Source: Bradyrhizobium genosp. L (GTDB taxonomy: Bacteria; Pseudomonadota; Alphaproteobacteria; Rhizobiales; Xanthobacteraceae). From it: a stretch of DNA of 64,000 nt. Under the pieces are notes generated by a model. That model had not been told where the DNA came from and searched no databases. It was given only the letters and a program-made list of their open reading frames with translations. Position numbers and translations under genes: made by a program. How positions within the stretch are numbered: position 1 is the first letter of the stretch; each line of letters opens with the position of its first letter. The stretch lies in assembly GCF_015624485.1 (NCBI RefSeq), contig NZ_CP061378.1, positions 6,262,001-6,326,000 on the forward strand, read 5' to 3'. This document shows positions 11,879-30,399 of the stretch, one piece after another.

Positions 11879-12712
11879 TTGCTGTTCCCATACTGGATCG
11901 ACAAGACCGCGGGCCTGCCAGGCACACTTATTGCGGGATGGCTTGTGGCGCTCACGGCGTGGATCGCGATGCCGCTCCCGGCGCAAGCAGCCCTTTCTAG
12001 CTCGCAGCTCGAACAGGCCGTTCTCGCACCTCGCGCCAATGCGCAATTGCCCTTGCAAACGCCGCTGAGCGACCTGGACAATCGCTCCGCGCCGCTGCAG
12101 ACCTGGCTCGGCGGCGTCCCGACGGTCTGGATCCTGGCCGACTACACCTGCGAAACGCTGTGCGGGCCGGCAATTTCGATCGTGTCAAACGCGCTGTCCG
12201 ATACGGACCTCCATGCGGGCAAGGATTTTCGGCTCATTGTCGTCGGCTTCGACGCCAAGGATACCGCCGCCCAGGCGCTGGCCATGAAGAATGCGCAGCT
12301 CAGTCCAAGGAACGGGCTCGGCGAGCACAGCGTGTTTCTCCGGGCGACGGCGCCCGATATCGGCGCCTTGACCGACGCGTTCGGCGTTCGGCCGATCTAC
12401 GATCGCGAGCATGACCAGTTTGCTCATCCCGCGGCCGCCTTCGTGGTGACGGCAGACGGGCGGATTTCCCGCGCGGTCTCGGCGCTCGCGGTCGATGCCA
12501 CCAGTCTGCGCCTTGCGCTGGCGGAGGCGGGCCACGGTCATGTCGGCGGCTGGAGCGATCAGATCCATCTGCTCTGCTACGGCTTCGACCCCGCCAGCGG
12601 GACCTATACGCTTGCCGCGCGGCGGCTGCTGGTCGCAACGTGCTCCCTCAGCATCATCGTCCTTGTTCTGCTGATCGAGCTGCTGCTTCGGCGCGAGCAC
12701 GCCACCAGATAG
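11879..12712 (+). CDS. SCO1/SenC-family copper chaperone for cytochrome oxidase
   Basis: This 277-residue protein has an N-terminal hydrophobic segment ending LPAQAA, a thioredoxin fold with the SCO copper motif CETLCGP (Cys-x3-Cys) and the distal His ligand (FAHPAAAFVV), and a C-terminal membrane helix (LLVATCSLSIIVLVLLIELLL). SCO proteins deliver or redox-prepare copper for the CuA site of oxidase subunit II, so it fits the coxB gene ~8 kb away. TTG 11879 behind GAGG is the likely start; no ATG or GTG would preserve the signal. It converges with actF and overlaps its 3' end by 59 bases. Confidence 0.85.
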   Translation: MLFPYWIDKTAGLPGTLIAGWLVALTAWIAMPLPAQAALSSSQLEQAVLAPRANAQLPLQTPLSDLDNRSAPLQTWLGGVPTVWILADYTCETLCGPAISIVSNALSDTDLHAGKDFRLIVVGFDAKDTAAQALAMKNAQLSPRNGLGEHSVFLRATAPDIGALTDAFGVRPIYDREHDQFAHPAAAFVVTADGRISRAVSALAVDATSLRLALAEAGHGHVGGWSDQIHLLCYGFDPASGTYTLAARRLLVATCSLSIIVLVLLIELLLRREHATR

Positions 12713-13763
12713 CGCCCAAAGGCTCCCGTTCTTCCGATCGCATGAAGACCGCGTCGAACGCCAGCCAGAGCACAGCACTGAGGAACAGCCCGGCCGCAAT
12801 CAACATGGCGCCGGTGACCATCGCTGACAGTCCATGAATGGCCGGCAGGATGAGGATGGCGGCTTCCAGCCAGCGCATCGTCAGCGTCAACCCGCACAGC
12901 GCCCCCAGCCAATGTGGGTCTGATCGCACCCGGCTACTGAGCATCGCGCAGAAGGGGAAGACGAATTGCCCGAACGAAAGCGCCGTCAGGACGAACTGCC
13001 AGCCGCTCTCCGATCGCACCAGATACCAGGTGACCTCTTTGGGGATGTTGCCCGACCAGATCACGATGTACTGCATGGCGTGGAGGTAGCACCACAGCAG
13101 TAGCACCGAGAGCAAGAGGCCGCTATAGCCTCGGCTCGGACCGATTCTGCGTGTCGACAAGAGGCCCGCGGCAATCACGAACGCCGTTCCATTCACCAGC
13201 AGGAAGCTAAGGAAGATGAGACCGTAGATCGACGAGTGAAATTCCGGCTCGAGCTGCTCCAGCCAGTCAATCCCGGCGAATGACACGGTCAGCGTCCACA
13301 CGATCGCTCCGACCGAGGCCGCGCGCACCATCGCTTCGTCATTGCGCCAGGCGCGCCGGAGCCATTCGGTGAGCACGATCCAGATCAGGAAATAGAGCAC
13401 CGCCCGCAGCATGAAGAACCACGGCGCAAACCAGTGCGCCTTGAACGGTGGCAATGTGGATCCATCCGCTATGGCCGGATAGATTTCCTTCATGAAGAGC
13501 AGGATCGGAATGAAGGTCAGCGCGACGACGGGCAGAATGCCTGATGTCGCTACGAAGATCGGATGCAGCGTCTCGGTCCAGCGGCGGCGCACCAGATAGC
13601 TAATCATGTAGACGATCAGCGCCCCGATCGGAATGGCGCCGAGGGCGGTCCAGGCGACAAGATAAGCGGCGATGGTCGAGCGGGCGTCGACGACAAATCC
13701 GGTCATCAGGACCAAGCCTGACACCACCGCCAACACGCTCCTTGCGCCGCCCGGCGTTGTCAT
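12654..13763 (-). CDS. actF: Alternative complex III, quinol-binding membrane subunit ActF
   Basis: This 369-residue multi-helix membrane protein (about ten hydrophobic segments) is the last gene of the act set. ActF resembles ActC and the NrfD family but is shorter; it anchors the complex and lies close to the quinol site. Features include the charged helix-end WLRRAWRNDE, the helix AGIDWLEQLEPEFHSSIYG, and a conserved-looking SGNIPKEVTWYLVRSESGW loop. Its start overlaps the actE stop as ATGA, which implies translational coupling. Assignment comes from topology and operon order. Confidence 0.85.
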   Translation of the reverse strand: MTTPGGARSVLAVVSGLVLMTGFVVDARSTIAAYLVAWTALGAIPIGALIVYMISYLVRRRWTETLHPIFVATSGILPVVALTFIPILLFMKEIYPAIADGSTLPPFKAHWFAPWFFMLRAVLYFLIWIVLTEWLRRAWRNDEAMVRAASVGAIVWTLTVSFAGIDWLEQLEPEFHSSIYGLIFLSFLLVNGTAFVIAAGLLSTRRIGPSRGYSGLLLSVLLLWCYLHAMQYIVIWSGNIPKEVTWYLVRSESGWQFVLTALSFGQFVFPFCAMLSSRVRSDPHWLGALCGLTLTMRWLEAAILILPAIHGLSAMVTGAMLIAAGLFLSAVLWLAFDAVFMRSEEREPLGAIWWRARAEAAARSAEQGR

Positions 13764-14290
13764 GGCCGGCTCTCCAGCCGCGCACGCTCATTTGCCGGGA
13801 CATCGTCGAGCGAGGCCTGGCGGCTGAGCTGAAGCGCGCGGATATAGGCGACGATCGCCCAGCGATCCCTGGGCGGCACGCGGGCCGCATAGGAATACAT
13901 CGCACCATGGCCGTTGGTGATGACGTCGAAGAAATATTGGTCGTCCGCGGCGCGCAGCCGGTCGTCGTGATAGCTCGCCGGGCGCGGCATGCCCCGCCGA
14001 ACGACGATGCCAGTTCCGTCACCGCCGGCGCCGTGGCACGGCGAACAGAAAATGCCGAAACGTTCGCGCCCTCGTGCCAGCAGTTCGGCCGATAATGCGG
14101 GTTTGGTACTCGCCGCCCTCTCCCGCTCCAGATCGTCCCGGGCAACCGTGTTCGCTGGTGGCTGCCGCAGCACGGTGCCGCGGAACAACGGCACGCGCGA
14201 ATATTCGCTGTAGCGTGGCTGCTCGTCCATATTCTGATCACAGGCGGCAAGCAGGCCCGCCAGCGCGACGATGGTTAGCCACCTGTTCAT
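13760..14290 (-). CDS. actE: Alternative complex III, monohaem cytochrome c subunit ActE
   Basis: This 176-residue lipoprotein has a lipobox LAAC at residue ~16 after a short hydrophobic leader, then a single c-type haem motif CSPCH in FGIFCSPCHGAGG, a likely Met ligand in RRGMPRP or GAMYSYA, and the C-terminal helix RWAIVAYIRALQLS typical of class I cytochrome c. In alternative complex III, ActE passes electrons from the complex to the next carrier, here plausibly the haem c of CoxB. It starts with ATGA overlap to actD. Confidence 0.88.
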   Translation of the reverse strand: MNRWLTIVALAGLLAACDQNMDEQPRYSEYSRVPLFRGTVLRQPPANTVARDDLERERAASTKPALSAELLARGRERFGIFCSPCHGAGGDGTGIVVRRGMPRPASYHDDRLRAADDQYFFDVITNGHGAMYSYAARVPPRDRWAIVAYIRALQLSRQASLDDVPANERARLESRP

Positions 14291-14817
14291 TCCGGCACCA
14301 GTTCCACCGACAACGCGCCGATCCTGCTGAGGAACGCGAGTGTCTCACTCGCATCGAACCTGGCATCGTCAGCACCGACGCACAGGAAGAACCGGTCCTT
14401 GCTGACGCGGTGAAACCGTTCCCCGTTGAATACGGGATAGCTGAGCCGGGGCAGCCCGTTCTGCCACAGCATGGCGAACAGCATGGCGAGCGCGCAGAAC
14501 AGGATGGTGAGCTCGAAGGTCACGACCGCGAAGGCCGAGATCGGGTAGATGGGCCGTCCACCGACATTGAGCGGGTAGTCGGAATTCGTGAAGAACTGCA
14601 TAGCGAGCGCGGTGCTCGCGCCGGCAATCGCTCCTCCGAGGCCGACGAAGGAGATGGTGGGCCGCGGAAACCGCAGAATACGATCGAGGCCCTCGACCGG
14701 AAACGGCGTGAACGCGTCGAGATCGCGATAGCCGGCCTCCCGCGCCTTGCGCGTCGCGGCGAGCAGGTCTTCCGGGCTCTTGAATTCAGCCAGCGCGCAG
14801 TAGAGCCGATCAGCCAT
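14287..14817 (-). CDS. actD: Alternative complex III subunit ActD (DUF3341)
   Basis: This 176-residue protein shows the DUF3341 pattern: an N-terminal soluble part (LYCALAEFKSPEDLLAATRK, then DAFTPFPVEGLD), two membrane helices (VGLGGAIAGASTALAMQF and FAVVTFELTILFCALAMLFA), and a soluble C-terminal tail. ActD is a structural subunit beside ActC. It overlaps actC by 8 bases and actE by 4. Confidence 0.88.
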   Translation of the reverse strand: MADRLYCALAEFKSPEDLLAATRKAREAGYRDLDAFTPFPVEGLDRILRFPRPTISFVGLGGAIAGASTALAMQFFTNSDYPLNVGGRPIYPISAFAVVTFELTILFCALAMLFAMLWQNGLPRLSYPVFNGERFHRVSKDRFFLCVGADDARFDASETLAFLSRIGALSVELVPE

Positions 14818-16161
14818 GCTGCTGCTCCTCTTTCTCCTCGTGGAGCAGCTCCTTGCTCTCGAAGATCGAGATCATGGGGACGAGCCTGATGGCGATGAGG
14901 AACGGCACCAGGAACAGACCGATCGTGCCGAAATAGGTAGACCAGTCCCAGAAGGTCGGCGTGAAGTGGCTCCACGATGACACCAGGAAATCGCGATAGA
15001 GGCTGGTGACCAGGATCATGTAGCGCTCGAGCCACATTCCGATGACCACGGATACCGAGATCAGCAGCAGCATCCATCCGCTTCGCCGCACCGCGCGCCA
15101 CCACAGCGCCTGCAGCGGGATGAAGTTGAAGATAACCGCGCCCCAATAGGTCCAGGCGTAGGCACCAGTGAACCGATCCGCCAGCGTTTGAAGCTCATGC
15201 GCCTCGCCGGAATAGACCGCGTCGAACACCTCGAAGACATAGCCATAACCGGTCATCAAGCCGGTCGCGAGCAGGACCTTCCCGAGCAGGTCGAGATGAT
15301 CGTCAGTGACGAGATTTTTGAGCTCGAACCACGAGCGCAGCGACACTGCGATGACGGAGACGACCGCGAAGCCCGAGAACGCGGCGCCCAGCACGAAGTA
15401 AGGCGGGAAGATCGTCGAGTGCCAGCCCGGGATCTGCCCGGCGGCGAACAGCAGCGACACCTCGCTGTGAACGGAGACGACCAGCGGCACCGCAAGCCCC
15501 GCGGTCAGCCGATACGCCTGCTGCCAGCGCTGCCAGTGCCTGGCCGAGCCGCGCCATCCGAGCGCCGTGATGCCGAAGAAGATCTGCCAGCCGCGCCGCG
15601 TCGCGCGATCGCGTGCCGCGGCGAGATCAGGGATCAGGCCGGTGTACCAGAAGGCCAGCGAGATCGTCAGGTAGGTCAGCACGGCCCAGATGTCCCATTC
15701 CAAGGGGCTGCGGAACTGCGGCCACACGCCCATCGTCGCGGGATAGGGAAACATCCAGTAGACGTACCAGGGCCGGCCGAGATGCAGGAGCGGATAGATG
15801 CCGGCGCACACCACGGCGAACAGCGTCATGGTCTCGGCGAAGCGATTGAGCGAGTTGCGCCACTCGCTGCCGGTGAGCAGCAGCAACGCCGAGATCAGCG
15901 TGCCGGCATGACCGATGCCGAGCCACCAGACGTAATTGTGGATCGCGAACGCCCAGTTGACGGGGATGTTGATGCCCCAGATGCCGACGCCGCGGGTAAA
16001 CAGCTCGGCCACCGAGACCATCAGCAGGAGCAGCAGCGCGCTCGCAACCGACATCGCGATCACCCAGCGCCGGTCCGCCGGAAAATGCAGGGGGATGCCG
16101 GTGAGCTGGTCCGCGATGCCGCCCATGCTCTGGCGCGTCGGCAGGACGTCCGATTGCTCGC

Positions 16162-16165
<4 letters not shown>
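14810..16165 (-). CDS. actC: Alternative complex III, NrfD-like membrane subunit ActC
   Basis: This 451-residue integral membrane protein of the NrfD/PsrC family has about ten helices. Visible landmarks are NVAWALHD-like helices such as NWAFAIHNYVWWLGIGHAG, the WRNSLNRFAE loop, HLGRPWYVYWMFPYP, and W-rich helix VSSWSHFTPTFWDWS. ActC contributes the quinol oxidation site next to the iron-sulfur subunit ActB. Its start overlaps the actB stop by 4 bases (ATGA). Confidence 0.9.
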
Positions 16166-19043
<2,878 letters not shown>

Positions 19044-19047
<4 letters not shown>

Positions 19048-19700
19048 CGGTGGCACACATAGCAATGCGTGAGCTCGCCGAAGCGGATGCCCTCATGGGC
19101 GGCGATCGTCTCACCCTCCTTACGCGCGTCCGCCGGCGGCGTCCACGCCATGTCCGTGATGTGATCCTCGGGGCGCAGATGCGGTGCGGGATCACGGTGG
19201 CAATCGATGCAGAACTGCATCGTGAACGCCTTGGCACGATAGGTCAGCGCCATCTGATCGATACGGCCGTGGCAGCTTTCGCAGCCGACGCCCTTGGCGA
19301 TATGGATGTCGTGACGGAAGAACACGTAGTCAGGCAGCTTTGCGACACGCGTCCATGGGATCGGCGTGTTGTCTGCAAAGCTCTTCCGCACCGGTTCCAG
19401 CATCGATGCATTGGTCCATATCTGCGAGTGACACGTCATGCAGGTCTCGGTCGGTGGGAGGCCGGCCTGCGGCCCTGCCTCGACATTGCCGTGGCAATAG
19501 CGGCAGTCGATGCCGAGTTCCCCTGCATGATGGCGGTGACTGAACGGCACCGGCTGATGCGGGCGGATGTCGGTCTCGGTCATGTAGGCCGAATGCGCCA
19601 ACCCGACAGCGGCCACGATGCTGCCGCCGGCAAGCGACAGGCCGCCGATCAGAAACAGGCGAATCCAGGTGTCCGCCACGGGTGAGAATATTTGCACCAT
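19044..19700 (-). CDS. actA: Alternative complex III, pentahaem cytochrome c subunit ActA
   Basis: This 218-residue protein has one N-terminal membrane helix (about 13-37) and five CxxCH motifs: CRYCH, CMTCH, CESCH, CIDCH and CYVCH at the very C-terminus. Several His residues (HRHH, HDIH) can be distal ligands. Five haems is the usual number for ActA. I prefer ATG 19700 (MVQIFSPVADT, the usual family N-terminus) over the upstream in-frame ATG 19754, because a candidate promoter would start transcription between them. It is the first gene of the minus-strand act operon. Confidence 0.88.
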
Positions 19701-19756
19701 TCTCGCTGCGAGCCGATGGCGAGCTGTCCGGTCGACAATCTGGCCCCCGGACATTG

Positions 19757-19793
19757 GTTCCTAATGTAGGAACACAATCCCCGAACATGCATT
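19757..19793. promoter_or_regulatory. Divergent EcfG-like promoter pair between act and cox operons
   Basis: An inverted pair GTTCC-N7-GGAAC spans 19757-19773. Going right, GGAAC (19769-19773), 16 bases, CATT (19790-19793) points to the cox operon. Going left, GGAAC (19761-19757), 16 bases, GATT points to actA. Both fit the looser RpoE2 consensus GGAAC-N18-TT, but neither has the full CGTT. The motifs are seen; the sigma-factor assignment is inference. Confidence 0.4.
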
Positions 19794-19822
19794 GTCCCGC
19801 CGCGATCGAGGACAGCACACTC

Positions 19823-20176
19823 ATGACGGGCACCACCCACGTCGACTACGAGCGGTCGGACGTCGGACTCCGCCTTGTCGGCTGGCTGGCAGCGGGCCTT
19901 GCGACTTTCGTCGTCATCACACCGCTCGTGCTGCCCTTCCTGTTCCCGCTTTCCACCAAGCACATCACGCCCGCGAGCCGCCCGGCGATGAGCTTCAATG
20001 CGCCACCGCTCGAGGTCATTCCACAAGCCACGTTGCAGGCAACACGACAGGGGGAAGCGCAGATCGAGCACGGTTACGGCTGGGCCGATCGCAGCCGAGG
20101 ACAAGTCCGCATCCCGATCGATCGCGCAGTCGAAATCCTCCTGCGCAAGGGATTGCCGGGATGGCCGTCTCCATGA
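19823..20176 (+). CDS. Small membrane protein leading the cytochrome oxidase operon
   Basis: This 117-residue protein has an N-terminal cytoplasmic tail, one helix (LVGWLAAGLATFVVITPLVL) and a periplasmic part ending GQVRIPIDRAVEILLRKGLP. The closing motif, a Tyr-Gly-Trp then IPIDRAM/V-type helix, recalls short proteins found beside SCO and oxidase genes in other act-cox clusters; that is from memory of the family. It may assist assembly of the oxidase or of the ACIII-oxidase supercomplex. GAGGA precedes ATG 19823. Confidence 0.7.
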   Translation: MTGTTHVDYERSDVGLRLVGWLAAGLATFVVITPLVLPFLFPLSTKHITPASRPAMSFNAPPLEVIPQATLQATRQGEAQIEHGYGWADRSRGQVRIPIDRAVEILLRKGLPGWPSP

Positions 20177-20202
20177 GCTCCTTCCGACCAGGGTTTTCCT
20201 AG

Positions 20203-21144
20203 ATGTGGCGACAGTGGATTCCGTTCTGGCATCCCGGGCTCTCGCCGCACAGCGGCGACGTCGATCTGCTGTTCGCGGGTCTTCTGATCGCAAGTGCACT
20301 GGTGCTCGCATTGCTGTTCTTTCTGCTGGCGCTGTTTTGCGCGCGCTACCGCGCAGGCAATCAGACCGACCGAAACCATCGCATCGAGAAGAGTTGGCAT
20401 TGGGAGGTGAGCTGGACAGCCGCCTCGTTCGTCTGCTTCCTCGGCCTGTTCGTCTGGGGCGCAAGCGTCTATTTCCAGATCTATCGCACTTCTGCGGACG
20501 AGCACGACATCTTCGTCGTGGCCAAGCAATGGATGTGGAAGACGCAGCATCCCGGCGGCCAGTCGGAGATCGACGCGCTGCACATTCCGGTCAAACGTCC
20601 TGTCCGCCTGGTGATGGCCTCGCAGGATGTCATTCACAGCTTCTTCATCCCGGCGCTCCGCCTCAAACACGATGTGGTTCCGGGTCGCTACCAGGACCTC
20701 GACATCGAAGTCGACAGGCCCGGTCACTATCACCTGTTCTGTGCTGAATATTGCGGTACCGACCATTCCGGCATGATCGGCGAGATCGTTGCGATGGAAC
20801 CGGCCGACTTCTCCAACTGGCTCACGCAGCAGGCGCCATCGAGCCCGCTCGCGCGCGAAGGCAGCCAGCTGTTCCGTGAGCTGGGTTGCAGCGGCTGCCA
20901 CGGCGGTGGCGGAACGATCCGTGCGCCGCCGCTCGAAGGCGTCTACGGCAAGCCGGTGCCGCTCGCAGACGGCACCACCGTGATCGCCGACGACAAGTAC
21001 ATCCGCGACTCCATCCTGCTGCCACGTAGCCAGGTGGTTGCAAGCTATCAGCCGTTGATGCCTTCGTTCGAGGGCAAGGTCAGCGAGGACCAGCTGTTGC
21101 GGCTCGTGATCTACATCAAATCGCTCGCGAGGCACCCATCATGA
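20203..21144 (+). CDS. coxB: Cytochrome c oxidase subunit II with fused cytochrome c (caa3 type)
   Basis: This 313-residue protein has two N-terminal membrane helices (about 22-47 and 70-95). The CuA cupredoxin domain has ligands visible as HSFFIPAL and [14 protein letters not shown] (two Cys, His, Met). A C-terminal class I cytochrome c domain has CSGCH and a Met in PLMPSF. The fused haem c makes this a caa3-type enzyme that can take electrons directly from a membrane complex such as ActE. It overlaps coxA by 4 bases (ATGA). Confidence 0.93.
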
Positions 21145-22748
21145 GCGAGAGAAGCTATCTCACCACTGACTACACGCTGCGATCATGGTTCCTGACGACG
21201 GACCACAAGCGGATCGCGATCCTGTATTTCGCGAGCCTGATCTTCTTTTTCTTCATCGGCGGCGCGGCCGCCACCGCGATCCGGATCGAGCTGGCGACGC
21301 CGCAGGCCGATCTTGTCAGCTCGGACGTCTATAATCGCCTGTTCACCATGCATGGCATTATCATGGTGTGGTTCTTCCTGATCCCATCGATTCCCAACAC
21401 GCTCGGCAACTTCATTGTGCCGCTGATGATCGGTGCGCGCGATCTCGCCTTCCCCCGGCTGAACCTGATGAGCTGGTACATCTTCATGCTGGGCGGTTGC
21501 ACCACGCTGTTTGCGATTCTGGCGGGCGGCGTCGATACCGGCTGGACGTTCTACACACCATTCTCGACGCTCTATTCCAACAGCTATGTGATCGTCGCGG
21601 CTGCCGGCGTCTTCATCGCCGGCTTCTCGTCGATCCTGACCGGGCTCAATTTCATCGTCACCATCCACCGCCTCCGTGCCCCGGGATTGACTTGGTATCG
21701 GCTGCCGCTTTTCCTGTGGTCGCTCTACGCGACCTCAGTCATCCTGGTCCTGGCAACACCGGTGCTCGCGATCACGCTGCTGCTGATGGCGACCGAACGC
21801 TTCTTCGGCGTCGGCATCTTCGATCCCAGGATCGGTGGCGATCCGCTGCTGTTCCAGCATCTGTTCTGGTTCTACTCGCATCCCGCGGTCTACATCATGA
21901 TCCTGCCGGGCATGGGAGTGATCAACGAGCTGATTTCCTGCTTCTCGCGCAAGCAGGTGTTCGGCTACAAGTTCGTGGCGTGGTGCAGCCTCGCCATCGC
22001 CGCGGTCGGCTTCCTGGTCTGGGGCCACCACATGTTCGTCAGCGGCCAGTCGCTGGTTGCAAGCCTCGTGTTCTCCTTCATGAGCTTCATCGTCGCGGTG
22101 CCCTCAGCGATAAAGGTGTTCAACTGGACCGCGACGCTACATAAGGGCTCGATCCATTTCGACGCGCCCATGCTCTATGCGCTGGCCTTCATCGGCCTGT
22201 TCACGATCGGAGGTCTCACTGGCCTGTTCCTCGCCTGCCTCGCCTTCGACGTGCACGCGACCGACACCTATTTTGTCGTCGCGCATTTCCACTACATCAT
22301 GGTCGGCGGCATGGTGACGGCCTATTTCGGCGGCCTGCATTATTGGTGGCCGAAGATCACCGGGCGGCTCTATTCGGAATATTGGGCGCGCACGGCGGCG
22401 GTGCTGATCTTCTTCGGCTTCAATCTGACCTTCTTTCCGCAATTCATTCTCGGGGCAGAGGGCATGCCGCGGCGCTATCACGTCTATCCCCCGGAATTTC
22501 AAGTCTGGAACGTGCTGTCCTCCGGGGGCGCCACCATCCTCGCCGTCGCCTATCTGATGCCGCTGTTCTACCTCGGCTATTCCGCATTCTTCGGCAAACG
22601 CGCGCCGGCGAATCCCTGGAACGCGCCCGGCCTCGAATGGCAGACGTCCTCGCCGCCGCCGGAGTTCAACTTTGAGACACAGCCGGTGGTGACGCGCGAG
22701 CCGTATCAATACAACGAGCGTTTCGAGGCGGAGCCGCAAAATGCCTGA
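21141..22748 (+). CDS. coxA: Haem-copper oxidase subunit I (A2 family)
   Basis: This 535-residue protein has 12 or so helices and all metal ligands: His71 and His384 for haem a, His382 for haem a3, and His247, His296 and His297 for CuB. Tyr251 is the residue that cross-links to His247. Where A1-type oxidases have Glu in the GHPEVY motif, this one has Tyr245-Ser246 and Ala249 ([14 protein letters not shown]), the mark of A2-type enzymes such as thermophile caa3 oxidases. A K-channel Lys candidate is Lys325. It reduces oxygen to water and pumps protons. It overlaps coxC by 8 bases. Confidence 0.94.
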
Positions 22749-23385
22749 GAGCTCCGCCTTCGCCCCGCAATATGCATCGATCCCACACCGCGACCACACC
22801 GCGGAACTCGGCATGTGGGTGTTCATCGCAACGGAAGTGCTGCTGTTCGGCGGCCTGATCCTCGCCTATTTCGTCTACCGGCACGCTTTCCCACAAGGCT
22901 TCGCCGCAGGCAGCCGGCACACCGAGATCGTGATCGGCACCACTAACACGGCCGTCCTGTTGACGTCGAGCTTTCTGGTGGCGTGGGCCGTCGAGATCTT
23001 TTCGCCGGCCACCACTGGGATCGTCACATGGCTGCTGATCGGTGCGGCGTGTCTCGGCCTTGTCTTCATCGTGCTCAAAGGCATCGAGTACCGCGGGGAA
23101 TATGACGAACATCTGGTGCCCGGGATCGACTTCCAGTTCGCTGGCTCAAAAGCCAATGGGGCCCAGCTGTTCTTTGTCTTCTACTTCATCGCCACCGCAA
23201 TCCACGCCCTGCACATGCTGATCGGGATCTGCCTGCTGGTCACGCTCACGATCATCTGCCGGAAGGCGCCGACGACGCGCCATCGCGCGGCCCTGCACAG
23301 CGCGGCGCTGTACTGGCATTTCGTCGACGTAGTCTGGATCTTCCTGTTCGCGCTGATCTACCTGCCCGGAAGGTCTGCGTCATGA
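22741..23385 (+). CDS. coxC: Cytochrome c oxidase subunit III
   Basis: This 214-residue membrane protein has five helices and subunit III signatures: [19 protein letters not shown] with a membrane Glu, [19 protein letters not shown], and [20 protein letters not shown]. It lacks the first two helices of the seven-helix form, as is normal for short bacterial versions. It supports proton uptake and stability of subunit I. ATGA-type overlap couples it to the subunit IV gene. Confidence 0.9.
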
Positions 23386-23657
23386 CGGACTGGCGACCAC
23401 CGATTGCTCTTGTTGGAGCCTGGCTCGCCCTGCTGGCCTTGCTGGCGCTGACGGTGACTCTGGCTTACGTGCCGCTCGGAGCCGGCAATGGCGTCGTGGC
23501 CCTGACCATCGGCACGATCAAGGCAGGCCTTGTCGCGGCCATCTTCATGGAGCTGCGACATCGCGGCGGTCTCACGCTCGTCTTCGCCGGCGCGGGACTG
23601 TTCTGGTTTGGAATCCTGCTATGGCTTGGATCAATGGATTTCCTGACGCGGACGTGA
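23382..23657 (+). CDS. coxD: Cytochrome c oxidase subunit IV (prokaryotic)
   Basis: This 91-residue protein has three hydrophobic helices: WLALLALLALTVTLAYV, a middle helix containing TIGTIKAGLVAAIFMEL, and VFAGAGLFWFGILLWLG. The pattern, including the Lys in the second helix and MELRHRGGLT, matches COX4_pro proteins at the end of caa3 operons. The helical anchor stabilises the oxidase. Its end lies 15 bases from the converging cytochrome c gene. Confidence 0.85.
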   Translation: MTDWRPPIALVGAWLALLALLALTVTLAYVPLGAGNGVVALTIGTIKAGLVAAIFMELRHRGGLTLVFAGAGLFWFGILLWLGSMDFLTRT

Positions 23658-23672: not shown

Positions 23673-24902
23673 TCAGTTCGTCCTGGCGTCGAGCGCCGCG
23701 CGCTCTTTCCTGGCCTCGTCCTCACTGACCGGTGGGGCCTTGCCCCAGTGGTTGCGGACGTAAGTCGCAACCGCCGCAACCTGCGCATCGTTCAATTGCC
23801 AGCCGAACGCGGGCATGGCGGGGCCAGTCGGCTCCTTGTCGGTCGCGACGCTCTGCGCGCCCTGGAAGATCACGCGCAGCACCGTCGTAGGGTCGCCCGT
23901 GTTAACGGTCGCCGCGTGTGCGAGGTTCGGGATGAGATCGGGAACGCCTGATCCATCCGACTTGTGACAGGCCGAGCAGAGGTCCTGATAGATCGCACCG
24001 CCCGCGGCCATCACATGCGCGTCCGCCGAGCTGTCCGCTGCGGGCTTCGGCCCCGAAACGTCTTTCAGATAGGTCGCCATCGCCTTGATGTCGTCCTCGC
24101 TGAGCTTCGACGTCGAGAGCTCGACAACTTCGCCCATCAGGCCAGCCGCTGCCGCAAACCGGTTGTGGCCGGTCTTGAGATATTGCGCGAGATCGTCGGC
24201 CGACCAGTCCGCAAGCGGTCCCTGCCCGCTGGTGATATCAGGCGCGACCCATCCCTGGAGCGTGTAGCCCTGCAGCTTTTTGTCGGACTTGTCGCCGCCC
24301 AACACCGTCTTCGGCGTATGGCAGGCGCCGCAGTGACCGGGGCCTTCGACGAGATAGGCGCCGCGATTCCACTGCTTCGACTTGTCCTGCTGCTCCAAGA
24401 ACTGGCCCGGTCTGAAATAGAGCCTGTCCCAGACCGTCATCGCCATGCGCTGGTTCAGCGGGAACGGCAGCCTGTTAGCGGCCACCGGATTATGAACCGG
24501 TTCGACCGTCGACAGATAAGCGCGAATGTCCTTGATGTCCTCTTGCGTCATACGCGCGAAGTAAGGAAACGGCATGGCCGGATAGAGCCGCTTGCCGTCG
24601 CGGCGCATACCTTTCCGCACGGCCGCGTCAAACTCCTCGTCGCTCCAGGCGCCGATCCCGGTCTCCTGATCCGGCGTGATGTTGGGCGCGACCAGCACGC
24701 CGAACGGCGTTTCAATGGGGCGGCCGCCGCTAAGGGGATGATCGCTACCCGGGACCGTATGGCAGCTGCCGCAATCGGCCGCAACAGCCAGATAGCGTCC
24801 GCGCTCGACGGCGGCGAAATCCTGCACGCCCGCCCCCATAGCGCCGCAAATTCCGGAAGCGAGCGCGAGCGCAGCGAGAGCGAGTTGTGCAACTCTACGC
24901 AT
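23673..24902 (-). CDS. Triheme membrane cytochrome c subunit of a GMC dehydrogenase
   Basis: This 409-residue exported protein has a signal peptide (LALAALALASGICGAMG) and three haem c motifs: CGSCH near residue 40, CGACH near 200 and CSACH near 315. Each is followed by a Met-bearing region (for example GPAMPAFGWQL for the third). This layout is that of the cytochrome subunit of membrane gluconate, alcohol or fructose dehydrogenases, which passes electrons from the FAD subunit to ubiquinone. It overlaps the FAD subunit gene by 8 bases. Confidence 0.9.
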   Translation of the reverse strand: MRRVAQLALAALALASGICGAMGAGVQDFAAVERGRYLAVAADCGSCHTVPGSDHPLSGGRPIETPFGVLVAPNITPDQETGIGAWSDEEFDAAVRKGMRRDGKRLYPAMPFPYFARMTQEDIKDIRAYLSTVEPVHNPVAANRLPFPLNQRMAMTVWDRLYFRPGQFLEQQDKSKQWNRGAYLVEGPGHCGACHTPKTVLGGDKSDKKLQGYTLQGWVAPDITSGQGPLADWSADDLAQYLKTGHNRFAAAAGLMGEVVELSTSKLSEDDIKAMATYLKDVSGPKPAADSSADAHVMAAGGAIYQDLCSACHKSDGSGVPDLIPNLAHAATVNTGDPTTVLRVIFQGAQSVATDKEPTGPAMPAFGWQLNDAQVAAVATYVRNHWGKAPPVSEDEARKERAALDARTN

Positions 24903-26673
24903 TGATCAGCTGCCCAGGTTTCTTGAGATATTGGGCGCGGATCGCATCGGCCGCCCAATAGGCGAGCGCAGCGACAGTACCGGTCGGGTTGTAGCCGGCG
25001 TTCTGCGGAAACGCGCTGGCGCCAAGTACGAACAGGTTTGGCACGTCCCAACTCTGGAGGTAGCGGTTCAGCGCGCTCGTGTTGGGATCCACTCCCATGA
25101 TCGCGCCGCCGCACAGATGCGTGGTCTGGTATTTGGTGATGTCGTAGGGCGCCTTGCGATACTCCTTGTGGACCTGCTTTGCGCCCATCGCCTGAAATAT
25201 CTCGGCGAGCTTGTCGGTCAGGAATGTGTTCTGCTTGATCTCGTTGTCGTGGAAATCCATGGTGATCCGCACCAGCGGCCGGTTGAAGCGGTCCTTGTAG
25301 GTGGGGTCAAGATCGACATAAACGTCGCGGTAGCTGTACATGCTGCCGTGGACGCCGGTCCCGGGCTTGATGGCGCTCTGATAGTTCTCCTTGACGGCCT
25401 TCTTCCACGCCGCGCCCCAAAGCGGCGTGCCCGGCGGCACCGGCGTGGTTTCGATCGGCCGGCCATTGGTTTGCACATTCCCCATGTAACCGCCGCCGAC
25501 GAAGCCGTGCGGACCGTGATCGAAATTGTCGCCGTTGAATTCGTCGATGCACATTCCGATCGCGCCTGACGCGATGAAGGGATTGAAGACAAATTTCACC
25601 GGATCGAAGAAGCTGACGACGTCGGAGATGGTCTGGTGGGTGAAGTTGCGGCCGATCACGCCGGTATTGGCCGCCGGGTCATAGGCCTTGCCGATACCCG
25701 ACAGCAGGAGGAGCTGGACGTTGAAGATCGTGTAGGCCGAGAGCACGACGAGGTCGGCCGGCTGCTCCCATTCGTCGCCCGCGCTGTCGACAAAGGTCAC
25801 GCCGGCGGCGCGCTTGCCGGAGCCGTCGACATTAATCCGCGTGACCTCGCTGTTGTCACGGGCCATGAAGTTGGGCTTGCGGATCAGTGCCGGCAGGATC
25901 GTGGTCTGCGGCGAGGCCTTTGAATAGTTGCCGCAGCCGAACCACTCGCAGAAGCCGCAATAGGTGCAGGGCCCGAGGCGAACACCGAGGGGATTTTGGT
26001 ACGGTCGCGACATGTTGCCGGAGGGCTGCGGGAACGGCTTGTAGCCGAGCTCGCGCGCCGCCTTGCCGAACAGCGTGTGACCGAACGGCTGCTCCTGCGG
26101 CGGATTGGGATAGGCGCGCGAACGCGGTCCCTCGAACTGGTTGCCGCCGTCCATGATTTTGCCCTTGATGTTGCCGGCCTGGCCGGACGTGCCGCAGAGA
26201 TATTCGAACCGGTCGTAATGCGGCTCGAGCTCGTCATAGGTCACGCCCCAATCCTGGATGGTCATGTCGTCGGGCAGAAAACCGGCGCCATAGCGCTCGG
26301 TCAGATGCGTCTTCAAGACGAAGTCCGAGGGCAGGAAGCGCCAGGTCTCGGCATTCCAGTGCACCCCTCCTCCGCCGACGCCGTTCGGCGGCATGAAGGC
26401 GCCCCAGCTTCGGATCGGTAGCGCTGCCTCGCTCATCTTGTTGCGGAAAGTGAAAGTGGTCTGGCCCGGCCTCAGGAACAGCTCGTGCCTGATGCGGTAG
26501 CGCAATTCGTCAGCCGCATAGCCCGGCGGGTAGTCGGTTGCGGTATTGCGCCACGGGCCACGCTCAATTGCGATGACGTCGAGCCCGGCGTCGGCGAGCT
26601 CATGGGCCATGATCGAGCCGGTCCAGCCGAGCCCGATGATGATGACGTCCTTCCGCGGGAGCTTACGGGCCAT
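24895..26673 (-). CDS. GMC-family FAD dehydrogenase, gluconate 2-dehydrogenase-like large subunit
   Basis: This 592-residue enzyme has the N-terminal FAD site IIGLGWTGSIMAHELADAG with Glu at the end of strand 2 (VIAIERG). A cysteine cluster CTYCGFCEWFGC near residue 235 is known in related dehydrogenases to hold an iron-sulfur centre that links FAD to the cytochrome. The C-terminal GMC part has HLCGGAIMG and NAGYNPTGTVAALAYWAAD with the catalytic His/Asn region. It oxidises a sugar, sugar acid or polyol in the periplasm; the substrate cannot be read from sequence. Its own leader is lacking, so it may ride out with the Tat-exported small subunit. Confidence 0.88.
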   Translation of the reverse strand: MARKLPRKDVIIIGLGWTGSIMAHELADAGLDVIAIERGPWRNTATDYPPGYAADELRYRIRHELFLRPGQTTFTFRNKMSEAALPIRSWGAFMPPNGVGGGGVHWNAETWRFLPSDFVLKTHLTERYGAGFLPDDMTIQDWGVTYDELEPHYDRFEYLCGTSGQAGNIKGKIMDGGNQFEGPRSRAYPNPPQEQPFGHTLFGKAARELGYKPFPQPSGNMSRPYQNPLGVRLGPCTYCGFCEWFGCGNYSKASPQTTILPALIRKPNFMARDNSEVTRINVDGSGKRAAGVTFVDSAGDEWEQPADLVVLSAYTIFNVQLLLLSGIGKAYDPAANTGVIGRNFTHQTISDVVSFFDPVKFVFNPFIASGAIGMCIDEFNGDNFDHGPHGFVGGGYMGNVQTNGRPIETTPVPPGTPLWGAAWKKAVKENYQSAIKPGTGVHGSMYSYRDVYVDLDPTYKDRFNRPLVRITMDFHDNEIKQNTFLTDKLAEIFQAMGAKQVHKEYRKAPYDITKYQTTHLCGGAIMGVDPNTSALNRYLQSWDVPNLFVLGASAFPQNAGYNPTGTVAALAYWAADAIRAQYLKKPGQLINA

Positions 26674-26682
26674 GTGTGACGC

Positions 26683-27408
26683 TCACGATTTTGCCGGGGT
26701 CCAGTCCGCGCGCCCCGCGATGCTGACGGGCGGATGCGGATAACGTTCGTTGTGACGACCGACCCAATCGCGATAATCGTAGCGAATGCCCGGAAAGCCG
26801 ATCATCTTCCAGCCGACCATGTCGATATTGCCGCCGTGAATGGGATCGGCAAAGAAGCCTTCGGGTACGTCCTTCAGCAGCGCCGAGAAGAATCCGAGGG
26901 CATCGACCCCATCGAACTTGACCTCGCCTGACTCAATTTTCCGCAACACATCATCCTGCGCGGTAGCATCGAGCTCCGCGAAGGATTTTCCGCCCTGGGT
27001 CGATTTGCAGTGCTTGTCGAGCGCGGCCAGCGCCTTGCGATAAAGCTCGGCATGGGTCATCGCCGATTGCGGCCCCTGCTCTTTGCTCCCTCTGGTGTAT
27101 GGCCCTAGCATGTAGAGGCCCTGGTTCGAGCCGTAGGGCCCTTTGAGCTGACGATCGATGAAGACCGCGCAGCCGGCGATCTTGCCGCCGGGCGTCTCCG
27201 GATCGGGCGGGATGATGCGATCGACGATCGCTTCCAACGCGCGGGCTTCATCGAGGGTGAAGAACTGCCAGGGACCTGGGCGCACCATCTCTGGCGGCGA
27301 GTTCGGATGGGGCGCCCACGGCACGTGATTGCGGATCACCGTCGCGCGCGTGAGGGATGTCGTCCCGACAAACCAGGCCGCGAGTGTCAAAAAGGTTCTG
27401 CGCTGCAT
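26683..27408 (-). CDS. Gluconate 2-dehydrogenase subunit 3 family, Tat-exported small subunit
   Basis: This 241-residue protein starts MQRRTFLTLAAWFVGTTSLT, a twin-arginine signal, and continues with the family pattern: FFTLDEARALEAIVDRIIPPD, then GCAVFIDRQLKGPYG, and a C-terminal DMVGWKMIGFPGIRYDYRDWVG. Such small subunits escort the FAD subunit through the Tat system and stabilise it. It is the first gene of the three-gene operon, with 9 bases to the FAD subunit. Confidence 0.88.
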   Translation of the reverse strand: MQRRTFLTLAAWFVGTTSLTRATVIRNHVPWAPHPNSPPEMVRPGPWQFFTLDEARALEAIVDRIIPPDPETPGGKIAGCAVFIDRQLKGPYGSNQGLYMLGPYTRGSKEQGPQSAMTHAELYRKALAALDKHCKSTQGGKSFAELDATAQDDVLRKIESGEVKFDGVDALGFFSALLKDVPEGFFADPIHGGNIDMVGWKMIGFPGIRYDYRDWVGRHNERYPHPPVSIAGRADWTPAKS

Positions 27409-27960: not shown

Positions 27961-30282
27961 TTACGCCGCCGAGATCGGCACCTCGCCGCCCTCGATGATC
28001 TCGGGCGGGACGTCCTTGAACAGCCGCACCGGCACCGACTTCGCCGCCGGCACCTTGCTGCCTTCGGCATAGTGCCAGAGGGGGATCAGCCCGTTGCATT
28101 CGGGGTAGTAGCCGGCGATGCTCCGGCGCGGGATATCATAGGGCACGACCTGAAGCTCGCTCAAGCTGCGCTCGACACCATCATTGGCCTCGGTCACCAG
28201 CGTGACCGTGTCTCCCGACTTCAGCCCGTCCGCCTCCATGTCAACCGGATTCATCAGCACGACGTAGCGGCTGCCCTGGATGCCGCGGAAGCGATCATCC
28301 TCGGTGTAGATCGTGGTGTTGAACTGCCCGTCGGCGCGCATGGTCATCAGCTCATACACGCCGTCACTCTCCTGCGGCGGAGCGAAGGCCGCCTCGGGCA
28401 CGGTGAAATTGGCCTTGCCGTTCGGCGTCTTCCATTTGCGCTCGCGCGCCGCCAGCGGCCGCGGAAAGCCGCCGGGCTCGAACATGCGCTTGTTGAAGTC
28501 CTTGAACTGATCGGGATAGGTCTGCTCAATGGCATCCCTGACGCGCGAATAGTCCGCGATCCAGCCGTCCCAATCGACCTTGGAGTTCGCCTTGAGGGTA
28601 GCCTTGGCGAGACCGGCGATGATCGCGGGCTCAGACAAGGCATGTTCAGCGACCGGCTTGCGCTGACCGCGCGAGCCATGAATGCAAGCGGTGGAATCCT
28701 CCATCGATACGGCCTGCGAGCCGCTGGCCTGCTCGTCGATCTCGATGCGGCCGAGACATGGCAGGAGGTAGGTGACTTCGCCCGGAACGATGTGGCTGCG
28801 ATTGAGTTTCGTTGCGATCTGCACCGACAGACGCAGGCCCGACCAGGCCGGCTCCATCAGCGAGCGCTCGGGGATTGCGCGCACGAAATTGCCGCCGAGA
28901 CTGACGAAGCCGCGAACGTCGCCCTTCAAAATGCCTTGGCAGGCGTCCACGGTGGAGAGACCGTCCCACCGCGGCGGCTCGAATCCGTAGAGGTCAGCAA
29001 GCTTGTCGAGCGGCACCAGCTTCGTCTTCTCGGAGATGCCGACCGTGCGCTGACCTTGGACGTTGGAATGCCCGCGGATCGGCGAGATGCCGGCGCCCGG
29101 CTTGCCGATATTGCCGCGCAGCAGCAGCAGATTGACAATCATCTTGGCGGTCTCGACGCCGTGCTTGTGCTGGGTGACGCCCATCCCATAATTGGCGATC
29201 ACGGCGTTGGCAGCCATATAGACGTTGGCGGCATCGATCGTCGCGGCGCGCGTGAGACCGGAGGCTCGCTCGATTGCGTCCCAGTCTTGCGCGCGGCAGA
29301 ACGCGGCAAACTCGTCGAAGCCCGACGTATGCTGCGCGATAAAGTCGACGTCCACGATGCGCGGCGATCCGTTCGCTCGTGCCAGATCATCCGATTCGAT
29401 CACACATTTGCAGATGCCGACAATCGCCGCAGCGTCGCCGCCGACGCGGACCTGATGATATTGCGTGCTGATGCGCGTGCCGCCCGCGATCATCTGCAGC
29501 GGGTTTTGCGGATTGACGAAGCGCTCGAGGCCCCGCTCCCGGAGCGGATTGAAGGTCACGATGGGCACGCCGCGCTGGGCTGCCTCCTGGAGCGGATGCA
29601 GCATCCGCGGTGCATTGGTCGTGGTGTTATGACCGAAGAAGAAAATGCAGTCGGTGTCGGCGAAATCCTTCAGCTGCACCGTGCCGACGGGAACTCCGAT
29701 GACCTGAGGCAACGCCACGGAGGTCGTCTCGTGGCACATGTTGGAGCTGTCGGGGAAATTGTTCGTTCCATACATCCGGCCGAACAGCTGGTACATGTAG
29801 CTGGCCTCGAGCGAGGCGCGGCCGGACGTGTACATGATGACCGAACGGGGATCGAGCCTATTGAGTTCGCTGCCGATCTCGCGGAACGTCTCGCTCCAGT
29901 CGACCGCCACGTATTTGTCACTGACCGGATCATAGCGCATTGGATGGGTCAACCGGCCCTGCTCCTCCAATTGATGATCGGACCAGCACCGCAGCTCGGT
30001 GAGCGTATGCTGAGCGAAAAACTCCGGCGTGACCGTCTTGCCGGTTATCTCCCAGGCGGTCGCCTTGGCGCCGTTCTCGCAGAATTCGAACGGATGCGGA
30101 TTTGCCGGCTTGGCCCAGGAGCAGCTCACGCACATGTAACCGCCGGGCTTGTTCTGCTTCAGCAGAATTTCGCTACCGAGGATCGCGACCTCTTCCTGCG
30201 TGAGAATGTGAACGACGGCGTTGAGCGAGCCCCAACCACCGGCGGGAGCATCATAATTTTCGACTTTGGCTTTCTGCCGCAT
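27961..30282 (-). CDS. FdhF/YdeP-family molybdopterin oxidoreductase
   Basis: This 773-residue soluble enzyme has an N-terminal Cys pair CVSC in GGYMCVSCSWAKPANPHPFE and a molybdopterin domain with HNTTTNAPR, AQRGVPIVTFNPLRERG, NYGMGVTQHKHG, KPGAGISPIRGHSNVQG. The C-terminal cofactor-binding barrel has PNGKANFTV, MTMRADGQFNT, GIQGSRYVVLMNP and DIPRRSIAGYYPE. The family includes E. coli YdeP (acid tolerance) and formate-dehydrogenase-like enzymes; the substrate is unproven. ATG 30282 behind GAAGGG is chosen over the longer frame. It is divergent from fdhD, whose product matures such enzymes. Confidence 0.88.
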   Translation of the reverse strand: MRQKAKVENYDAPAGGWGSLNAVVHILTQEEVAILGSEILLKQNKPGGYMCVSCSWAKPANPHPFEFCENGAKATAWEITGKTVTPEFFAQHTLTELRCWSDHQLEEQGRLTHPMRYDPVSDKYVAVDWSETFREIGSELNRLDPRSVIMYTSGRASLEASYMYQLFGRMYGTNNFPDSSNMCHETTSVALPQVIGVPVGTVQLKDFADTDCIFFFGHNTTTNAPRMLHPLQEAAQRGVPIVTFNPLRERGLERFVNPQNPLQMIAGGTRISTQYHQVRVGGDAAAIVGICKCVIESDDLARANGSPRIVDVDFIAQHTSGFDEFAAFCRAQDWDAIERASGLTRAATIDAANVYMAANAVIANYGMGVTQHKHGVETAKMIVNLLLLRGNIGKPGAGISPIRGHSNVQGQRTVGISEKTKLVPLDKLADLYGFEPPRWDGLSTVDACQGILKGDVRGFVSLGGNFVRAIPERSLMEPAWSGLRLSVQIATKLNRSHIVPGEVTYLLPCLGRIEIDEQASGSQAVSMEDSTACIHGSRGQRKPVAEHALSEPAIIAGLAKATLKANSKVDWDGWIADYSRVRDAIEQTYPDQFKDFNKRMFEPGGFPRPLAARERKWKTPNGKANFTVPEAAFAPPQESDGVYELMTMRADGQFNTTIYTEDDRFRGIQGSRYVVLMNPVDMEADGLKSGDTVTLVTEANDGVERSLSELQVVPYDIPRRSIAGYYPECNGLIPLWHYAEGSKVPAAKSVPVRLFKDVPPEIIEGGEVPISAA

Positions 30283-30399
30283 GGCGGGCCCTTCAGCTAC
30301 AAGCCCCGATCGGAAAACGGAAGGCGGCATCGCTGGTTCCTACGCATTCGGAACATTGCGCGCGCTGGCGCGTCGATATTTCGTCGCAGGACGAACATC

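What the first reader, a model, noticed from the sequence alone, without database searches (positions are those of the whole stretch)
12654..23657. Alternative complex III with an A2-type caa3 oxidase in a Bradyrhizobium-like genome
Seen: five-haem ActA, four-cluster ActB, NrfD-like ActC, DUF3341 ActD, monohaem lipoprotein ActE and ActF, all intact and joined by overlaps, with a divergent coxBACD operon whose CoxB carries its own haem c. Known: alternative complex III replaces bc1 in Bacteroidetes, Chloroflexi and others and can form a supercomplex with caa3 oxidase; most alphaproteobacteria rely on bc1. Inference: the module was acquired as a unit and gives a second, bc1-independent route from quinol to oxygen.
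Basis: partly seen in the sequence, partly recalled or inferred. Interest (0 to 1): 0.75.

Follow-up and report, generated by a model that had tools for sequence, protein, structure and literature searches.

The report
Probably stress-controlled backup respiratory chain module
A soil bacterium related to Bradyrhizobium carries, besides its ordinary respiratory chain, a complete second chain to oxygen (alternative complex III plus a caa3 oxidase) whose promoters look like those of the general stress response, which would explain why a bacterium that already has the normal enzyme keeps this one.

Summary
In detail: actABCDEF (minus strand) and a divergent coxBACD (plus) are intact. Two corrections: a missed gene, actG (19823-20176 +), heads the oxidase operon, and actA most likely starts at 19700. 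The kind is known: ACIII beside an A2-type oxidase in Alphaproteobacteria is in print. The same genome has cytochrome c1 and three other COX1 genes, so this is an extra branch. ActB and CoxA distances within the genus agree with each other (rho 0.94) but not with rpoB or bc1 (0.02-0.16), so the module moves laterally. It lies in a proteobacterial ACIII clade. New here: (i) act and actG-cox share a 122-bp spacer with mirror-image GGAAC-N16-NATT sites, the EcfG general-stress promoter form; such sites precede actA (19/25), actG-cox (24/26) and the dehydrogenase operon (14/16) of this clade and the first operon gene in 6/8 further alphaproteobacterial plasmid loci, against 2/55 non-alphaproteobacterial loci; (ii) actG travels with cox; (iii) the ActC quinol-site Asp253 is Leu, with Glu one turn earlier. 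Best reading: a stress-induced quinol-to-oxygen branch fed by the neighbouring FAD dehydrogenase. Regulation is inferred, not shown.

The parts
12654..13763 (-). actF, NrfD-like membrane subunit (369 aa)
   Evidence: phmmer to ActF of 6f0k, 8k9e, 6lod, 6btm; no Pfam or NCBIfam hit at E 0.001
13760..14290 (-). actE, monohaem cytochrome c, lipoprotein-like N-terminus (recalled motif)
   Evidence: PF13442/PF00034; one CxxCH
14287..14817 (-). actD
   Evidence: PF11821 E 2e-57; the only ActD match in the genome
14810..16165 (-). actC, quinol-site subunit; Asp253 of R. marinus is Leu239 here, Glu235 one turn earlier
   Evidence: PF03916; 8k9e_C E 2e-156; residue map
16162..19065 (-). actB, Mo-enzyme-like plus four-cluster Fe-S domains, Tat-type start; likely ATG start at 19047
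   Evidence: 6lod_B E 9e-225; TIGR04519; 15 Cys
19044..19700 (-). actA, pentahaem cytochrome c (listed ORF begins 19754; likely start at 19700)
   Evidence: five CxxCH; QrcA-like; M-x-QIF start in relatives
19701..19822 (.). spacer with two back-to-back EcfG-type promoter sites: minus 19761-19737 GGAAC-N16-GATT towards actA, plus 19769-19793 GGAAC-N16-CATT towards actG-cox; palindrome 19757-19773
   Evidence: family profile A2 to ActG chain 8k9e_G E 2.5e-9; directly before coxB in 25 of 25 clade members tested
20203..21144 (+). coxB, CuA subunit with C-terminal haem c
   Evidence: TIGR02866; CuA motif at 180, CxxCH at 229
21141..22748 (+). coxA, A2-type haem-copper oxidase subunit I
   Evidence: TIGR02891 E 6e-203; YSHPAVY at 245
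22741..23385 (+). coxC, subunit III
   Evidence: PF00510
23382..23657 (+). coxD, subunit IV
   Evidence: TIGR02229 caa3 subunit IV
23673..24902 (-). trihaem cytochrome c of a membrane FAD dehydrogenase
   Evidence: PF00034; three CxxCH
24895..26673 (-). GMC flavoprotein subunit, fructose/glucose-dehydrogenase-like
   Evidence: PF05199; 8xcm_A and 7w2j_A fructose dehydrogenase E about 1e-28
26683..27408 (-). Gluconate_2-dh3 small subunit, the only match in the genome
   Evidence: PF13618
27435..27459 (-). EcfG-type promoter site GGAAC-N16-CGTT before the dehydrogenase operon
27961..30330 (-). FdhF/YdeP-type molybdoenzyme (start probably 30282)
   Evidence: TIGR01701 E 1e-282
30316..30340 (-). 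EcfG-type promoter site GGAAC-N16-CGTT before fdhF/ydeP
30400..31227 (+). fdhD (start not fixed)
   Evidence: TIGR00129 E 6e-57

Best explanation
The locus encodes a complete alternative complex III (ActA-G) and its partner A2-type caa3 oxidase, a bc1-independent branch from ubiquinol to oxygen: quinol is oxidised at ActC, electrons pass through the ActB Fe-S clusters and/or the ActA haems to ActE, and on to the haem c of CoxB without a soluble carrier. In this lineage the actA-F block has been inverted relative to actG-cox, so both operons run in opposite directions from one short spacer with mirror-image promoter sites of the EcfG (general stress response) type. The adjacent FAD dehydrogenase (trihaem c, GMC, small subunit) and the FdhF/YdeP enzyme carry the same promoter type, so the most likely role is a stress-induced respiratory branch that takes electrons from a periplasmic sugar or sugar-acid oxidation while bc1 serves ordinary growth. 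Shown: gene content, family assignment, lateral co-movement, promoter motif and its conservation. Inferred: electron path, supercomplex, inversion, EcfG dependence, substrate.
For: Homology to solved ACIII and caa3, ActG profile match. Cytochrome c1 and three other COX1 in the genome. Motif GGAAC-N16/17-NRTT: before actA 19 of 25, before actG-cox 24 of 26, before the dehydrogenase operon 14 of 16 (14 CGTT), before fdhF/ydeP 6 of 8 in this clade; type II actA 8 of 20 and fdhF/ydeP 9 of 9; other proteobacterial actA 10 of 30; non-alphaproteobacterial 2 of 55; shuffled expectation 0.5-1.8% per region for the six sets in which it was computed. Further plasmid records: first operon gene 6 of 8 alphaproteobacterial, 0 of 2 betaproteobacterial, 1.5% expected. 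Control loci show no comparable excess: rpoB loci 18 against 12.4 expected, bc1 loci 0 against 10.9, non-alpha loci 43 against 57.6; type I loci 155 against 27.8. Columns outside the search pattern are conserved too: TTG, and TTGTc on the cox side. Consensus GGAAC-N16-CGTT with a flexible -10, EcfG confined to Alphaproteobacteria (PMC3892343, PMC7083833, passages). The small-subunit gene is the only one of its family in the genome; in the genus it occurs in 36 of 46 ActD-bearing and 70 of 219 other genomes, p 1e-8, not corrected for kinship.
Against: The -10 boxes before actA and actG are GATT and CATT, not the consensus CGTT. Six of 25 clade members lack the actA-side motif; 12 of 20 type II loci lack it before actA (nine of these 12 have it before a joined fdhF/ydeP gene); GMC genes near type II clusters have it in 1 of 7. 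Among the plasmid loci Rhizobium sp. 11515TR and Nitrobacter hamburgensis lack it at actA, and the Mn-catalase beside the Martelella cluster lacks it. EcfG itself was not looked for in this genome. No expression data exist here. A complete dehydrogenase module stands next to the cluster in 10 of 19 type I stretches with cox, one is partial, eight have none or a fragment. The neighbourhood as a whole is rich in the motif (27 sites against 4.6 shuffled), so part of the signal could reflect a stress-gene neighbourhood. Rows within a clade are kin, so counts are not independent.
Confidence: 0.72

Rival explanations
1. The module is an ACIII-caa3 branch as described, but its control is ordinary (sigma-70 or another regulator) and the GTTCC-N7-GGAAC palindrome is a repressor or activator site rather than two EcfG promoters.
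For: The site before act/cox is a palindrome, and the -10 boxes deviate from CGTT.
Against: The dehydrogenase and fdhF/ydeP operons carry GGAAC-N16-CGTT sites outside such a palindrome; the fixed 16-base spacing and conserved TTGTc are unexplained by a palindrome; codirectional alphaproteobacterial clusters can carry a site before actA although cox is not divergent there.
Confidence: 0.18
2. The branch serves low oxygen and is controlled by FixK/FNR, as many alternative oxidases of rhizobia are (recalled).
For: A2-type oxidases can have sub-micromolar Km (PMC6431628, passage); a Crp-type regulator lies at 47407-48123.
Against: No TTGA-N6-TCAA site (FixK/FNR form recalled) within one mismatch lies in 19701-19822; the window total of 20 is near chance, 15.7 expected.
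Confidence: 0.07
3. The whole module was acquired directly from another phylum such as Chloroflexota, Acidobacteriota or Bacteroidota.
For: Patchy presence, 46 of 265 genomes of the genus; plasmid-borne relatives exist.
Against: ActA-E place it inside an alpha/gammaproteobacterial clade with 100/100 support; the Acidobacteriota, Chloroflexota, Planctomycetota and Verrucomicrobiota rows lie outside. Bacteroidota were not in the trees; the solved Flavobacterium ActB (6btm, organism recalled) scores lower than the other three complexes.
Confidence: 0.03

Closest known systems
Alternative complex III of Rhodothermus marinus, Flavobacterium johnsoniae, Roseiflexus and Chloroflexus (PDB 6f0k, 6btm, 6lod, 8k9e; organisms of the last three recalled)
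   Same: Subunits A-F and, for 8k9e, G; haem and Fe-S inventory; three of four listed quinol-site residues
   Different: ActC Asp253 is Leu with Glu at 249; ActF lacks most listed cytoplasmic half-channel residues; actG lies in the oxidase operon
COX operon type a-I of Alphaproteobacteria (Act plus A2-type oxidase; PMC4013037, PMC6431628)
   Same: Act cluster beside an A2-type oxidase in an alphaproteobacterium
   Different: Here act and cox are divergent and no sco gene lies in the cluster; act-cox loci seen outside the clade are codirectional, with room for a sco gene between actG and coxB in 52 of 55 named loci
Three-subunit FAD dehydrogenases (fructose dehydrogenase 7w2j, glucose dehydrogenase 6a2u)
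   Same: GMC flavoprotein, Gluconate_2-dh3 small subunit, trihaem cytochrome c (subunit plan of the known enzymes recalled)
   Different: Only weakly similar (E about 1e-28 and 1e-21); substrate unknown; sits beside ACIII-caa3
EcfG/PhyR general stress regulon of Alphaproteobacteria
   Same: GGAAC-N16-NRTT sites close to start codons
   Different: The two-term search for this response and ACIII found no paper; searches found nothing that, from the listings, joins them

Membership tests
Alternative complex III | Pentahaem ActA | tested here: met
   five CxxCH
Alternative complex III | ActB with Mo-enzyme-like domain and three [4Fe-4S] plus one [3Fe-4S] | tested here: met
   cluster types inferred from 15 Cys and homology
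Alternative complex III | ActC NrfD-like with His139, Ser164, Asp169, Asp253 | tested here: inconclusive
   fold family and three residues met, Asp253 replaced by Leu
Alternative complex III | ActD (PF11821) | tested here: met
Alternative complex III | Monohaem ActE | tested here: met
Alternative complex III | ActF, second NrfD-like subunit | tested here: met
   listed half-channel residues mostly not kept
Alternative complex III | ActG, one-helix subunit | tested here: met
Alternative complex III | Quinol:cytochrome c or quinol:oxidase activity | not testable with these tools
   needs membranes
A2-type caa3 oxidase | YS motif in subunit I, CuA and fused haem c in subunit II, subunit IV | tested here: met
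ACIII-caa3 supercomplex | Co-purification | not testable with these tools
   needs membranes
EcfG general stress regulon | GGAAC-N16-17-NRTT close upstream of the start codon, conserved in relatives | tested here: met
EcfG general stress regulon | EcfG, NepR and PhyR present in the genome | not tested
EcfG general stress regulon | EcfG-dependent transcription | not testable with these tools
   needs expression data
Three-subunit FAD dehydrogenase | GMC flavoprotein, Gluconate_2-dh3 subunit, trihaem cytochrome c | tested here: met

The most novel reading that the evidence does not exclude
In Alphaproteobacteria that already have bc1, ACIII-caa3 is a dedicated general-stress respiratory chain: several separate ACIII lineages have come under EcfG promoters, together with an FAD sugar dehydrogenase and an FdhF/YdeP molybdoenzyme, and in one clade an inversion put the two operons onto a single bidirectional stress promoter. 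The same clade shares with its sister a second quinol-site carboxylate of ActC moved by one helical turn (Asp253 to Glu249), a natural variant at the proton-coupling site of a complex whose coupling mechanism is unsettled.
Probability: 0.5. Interest if true: 0.75.

Novelty: new variant of a known kind. Interest (0 to 1): 0.6.

Why it matters
Why bacteria with a working bc1 complex keep a second, structurally unrelated quinol:cytochrome c oxidoreductase has, to my knowledge, no clear answer. A stress-regulon assignment gives one that can be tested with a single sigma-factor deletion in ordinary laboratory rhizobia. The Asp253 to Leu / Glu249 change, shared by two sister groups and absent from the second ACIII type of the same genus, offers a natural experiment on how ACIII couples quinol oxidation to proton movement. 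ActG, for which I found no Pfam or NCBIfam model, lies before coxB in all 100 act-cox loci that passed my filter.

Tried and rejected
Swap of the oxidase partner: ActA-E rejected A+B+C without D (AU p 0.004) and Cox rejected B+C+D (p 0.012), which looked like a replaced oxidase in this clade; with the long-branched Methylobacterium-type group A removed, Cox no longer rejects B+C+D (p 0.415), so I dropped the idea for this clade. ActB alone (p 0.08) and CoxA alone (B+C+D p 0.20) did not show the conflict either. Cox rejects C+D (p 0.0003). The act test of C+D without group A did not finish. Groups were named after the trees were seen.

Quinone type as the cause of the Asp253 change: rejected, because type II complexes of the same genus, one of them in the same genome (G240) as a type I, keep Asp253.

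Type II clusters as lacking cox: my first stretches were cut short; re-fetched, all 20 have cox downstream.

The first rpoB comparison used antisense reading frames for some genomes and was discarded; one search replaces it. ActB data reject the CoxA best tree (p 0.0002), while CoxA data do not reject the ActB tree (p 0.099), so co-movement is strong but not exact. rpoB and bc1 also reject each other's exact topology, although their distances agree (rho 0.84).

A pooled Fisher test of the motif counted two Pseudomonas loci twice; I do not use it.

FixK/FNR sites: none in the spacer. Secondary structure of the spacer: the palindrome folds; not pursued.
Full report
What is there. Family searches and solved structures identify alternative complex III and an A2-type caa3 oxidase. 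Two things were missed. A 117-residue, one-helix protein at 19823-20176 (+) opens the oxidase operon, 26 bases before coxB. It came to light because the spacer, aligned over relatives, is conserved as codons. The window protein has no NCBIfam match up to E 1 and, in Pfam, none up to E 0.1; five of the 21 aligned relatives give one weak, unrelated Pfam hit or are hit by one family each. A profile of the 21 finds ActG of an ACIII structure (8k9e_G, E 2.5e-9; Chloroflexus, recalled). Among loci whose CoxB covers at least 85% at 38% identity or more and that have 1.2 kb upstream, actG lies before coxB in 25 of 25 of this clade, 55 of 55 named loci of other clades and 20 of 20 type II Bradyrhizobium loci; loci with more distant CoxB were dropped. 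PMC5928083 (passages) calls ActG the one subunit not found in all act clusters; in these act-cox loci I found no exception. Second, actA most likely starts at 19700, not 19754.

Genome context. The window is part of a 7.4-Mb single-contig genome of a genus with 265 genomes searched. That genome has cytochrome c1, four COX1 genes including this one, three SCO genes, none of them in the window, and a single ActD. 46 of 47 ACIII-bearing genomes searched have a cytochrome c1 match, one of them a fragment (G101); the exception, G167, is a 4.3-Mb draft at 95% completeness. So ACIII is added to bc1 here, not a replacement.

Distribution. ActD is in 46 of 265 genomes of the genus, 49 copies. I call type I the 27 copies at 186 bits or more, type II the 22 below. 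Of type I I read the window's own, 20 fetched stretches and L093; five were placed by score alone, and near the border (186 against 185 bits) score does not separate the types. Of type II I fetched 20 of 22. One type I stretch, L085, holds only actC-F. A long ActB match occurs in 17 of 198 genomes drawn from the family, own included, 15 of 397 in the order (30 with any match at 1e-30) and 6 of 385 in the class, own included, one split over two frames. Nineteen plasmid records of 72,556 carry a match, among them a conjugative B. japonicum plasmid.

Known or not. ACIII with an A2 oxidase in Alphaproteobacteria is in print as COX operon type a-I (PMC6431628 and PMC4013037, passages), and 46 alphaproteobacterial species with ActC/F were counted in PMC8076601 (passages). 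So the pairing itself is not new.

Ancestry. In a 71-row tree of ActA-E the window's lineage (clade D) groups with a codirectional alphaproteobacterial clade (C), a Pseudomonas clade (B) and a Methylobacterium-type clade (A), 100/100; the Acidobacteriota, Chloroflexota, Planctomycetota and Verrucomicrobiota rows lie elsewhere (wider ActB tree). No Bacteroidota row was included. Among the loci in which cox was seen, clade D alone has act and cox divergent; the others are codirectional, in general actABCDEF-actG-(sco)-cox. One inversion of the actA-F block, with its inner break between actF and actG, and loss of sco would give the present order. That is an inference from order.

Movement. Over 19 genomes of the genus (171 pairs) rpoB and bc1 distances agree (rho 0.84) and ActB and CoxA distances agree (0.94), but the two sets do not (0.02-0.16); ActB and CoxA data each reject the rpoB and bc1 topologies. 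CoxA data do not reject the ActB topology (p 0.097), while ActB data reject the CoxA one. The module therefore moves between species largely as a unit.

Neighbours. Converging on coxD are a trihaem cytochrome c, a GMC flavoprotein and a Gluconate_2-dh3 subunit, akin to fructose and glucose dehydrogenases. This small subunit is the only match of its family in the genome. In the genus the family occurs in 36 of 46 ActD-bearing genomes and 70 of 219 others (p 1e-8, kinship ignored). A GMC gene at 0.9 coverage or better is in 10 of the 19 type I stretches with cox, one more is partial and eight have none or a fragment; FdhF/YdeP at that coverage is in 9 of 19 (stretches end about 8.5 kb past coxA). 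The same three dehydrogenase genes stand next to act in other lineages: Microvirga puerhi L098, Frateuria L131 and L134, L201, type II L064 and L066, and, just before actA, a Mesorhizobium plasmid. FdhF/YdeP is joined to actA (gap -71 to 30 bases) in 9 of 9 type II loci that have it, as on the B. japonicum plasmid.

Promoters. The 122-base spacer holds GTTCCTAATGTAGGAAC (19757-19773; 0.02 matches expected by chance with up to three mismatches). Each GGAAC is followed after 16 bases by GATT (towards actA) or CATT (towards actG); the two are the only GGAAC-N16-19-ATTGT in the window, 0.2 expected. This is the form of EcfG promoters, GGAAC-N16-CGTT with a variable -10 (PMC3892343, PMC7083833, PMC6599016, passages). 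With the pattern GGAAC-N16/17-NRTT, clade D has it before actA in 19 of 25, within 560 bases before coxB (actG included) in 24 of 26, before the dehydrogenase in 14 of 16 (CGTT in 14) and before fdhF/ydeP in 6 of 8. Type II: actA 8 of 20, fdhF/ydeP 9 of 9, GMC 1 of 7. Other proteobacterial loci: 10 of 30, three of them Pseudomonas without it. Non-alphaproteobacterial loci: 2 of 55; two Pseudomonas loci stand in both of these sets. Shuffled regions gave 0.5-1.8% in the six sets tested. The pattern was made while looking at clade D, so I then took ten of the 19 plasmid records: in 6 of 8 alphaproteobacterial ones the first operon gene has the motif (Azospirillum, Martelella, two Rhizobium at actA; Mesorhizobium at both actA and the dehydrogenase; B. 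japonicum at fdhF/ydeP). Rhizobium sp. 11515TR has none (its actA start was guessed), and Nitrobacter hamburgensis has one only before the gene upstream of actA; the two betaproteobacterial ones have none. These records are new to the test but not unrelated: the B. japonicum site equals that of L061. Controls: genus rpoB loci 18 sites against 12.4 expected, bc1 loci 0 against 10.9, non-alpha loci 43 against 57.6, type I loci 155 against 27.8, type II 78 against 33.1. EcfG is reported to be confined to Alphaproteobacteria (PMC3892343, abstract), which fits the non-alphaproteobacterial result. In the searched library no paper holds both general stress response and alternative complex III or DUF3341 and stress; EcfG with caa3 gave one Burkholderia paper, and EcfG, general stress response and cytochrome c oxidase three papers, all seen in the listing only. 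The library omits most subscription papers.

Quinol site. PMC8076601 (table, passages) lists His139, Ser164, Asp169 and Asp253 of R. marinus ActC as conserved above 95%. Here the first three are kept (His128, Ser153, Asp158) but Asp253 is Leu239, and Glu235 stands at position 249, one turn earlier on the same helix. All 19 type I ActC rows, the family members of clade D and clade C share Glu249/Leu253; Pseudomonas has Gly/Leu, the Methylobacterium group Gly/Met; type II and the other rows keep Asp253, except L100, L102 and L168 with Glu253. Val250, between the two, lines the quinol pocket (PMC5928083, passage), so Glu249 could take over; that is a guess without a structure. In ActF the listed cytoplasmic half-channel residues His88, Arg100, Glu103 and Asp184 are not kept, on an alignment of low identity.

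How it probably works. Under stress, EcfG switches on the FAD dehydrogenase, possibly the FdhF/YdeP enzyme, ACIII and caa3 together. The dehydrogenase reduces ubiquinone through its trihaem cytochrome; ACIII re-oxidises it and hands electrons through ActE to the haem c of CoxB. Shown: genes, relatedness, motif, co-movement. Inferred: everything about expression, electron path and substrate.

Noticed in passing
window 33000-64000: This flank is also rich in EcfG-type sites (15 against 3.3 shuffled) and holds Mn-catalase/DUF892, DUF892, DUF2934, SDR and a Crp-type regulator; it looks like a stress-gene neighbourhood.
   Followed up: partly
window 1706-2549 and 54815-55667: Two repeat blocks (300 nt at 97%, 179 nt at 95%) recur 53 kb apart, each place with nearly the same GGAAC sites; an 81% repeat also at 37335 and 42880.
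   Followed up: no
window 19823-20176 and relatives: ActG family: a conserved E-x-x-D near the start and a YGWVDR-x-x-G-x-VRIPI-x-RAM-like end, with no Pfam or NCBIfam model found.
   Followed up: partly
L085 (G218:C1:6726000-6745900): A second type I copy in one genome with only actC, D, E and F found in the stretch; looks like a remnant.
   Followed up: no
G167: The one ACIII-bearing genome of the genus in which no cytochrome c1 was found (4.3 Mb, 95% complete); possibly a natural bc1-free member or a gap.
   Followed up: no
L052-L055, L206, L211: A third ACIII lineage (IIb) in the genus and family, apart from types I and IIa in the ActB tree and, for L052, L053, L055 and L211, in the Act and Cox trees.
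   Followed up: partly
window 28072-31227: fdhD reads divergently from fdhF/ydeP within a long open frame; a KDPG/KHG aldolase follows at 31712-32404, which would fit sugar-acid metabolism.
   Followed up: no
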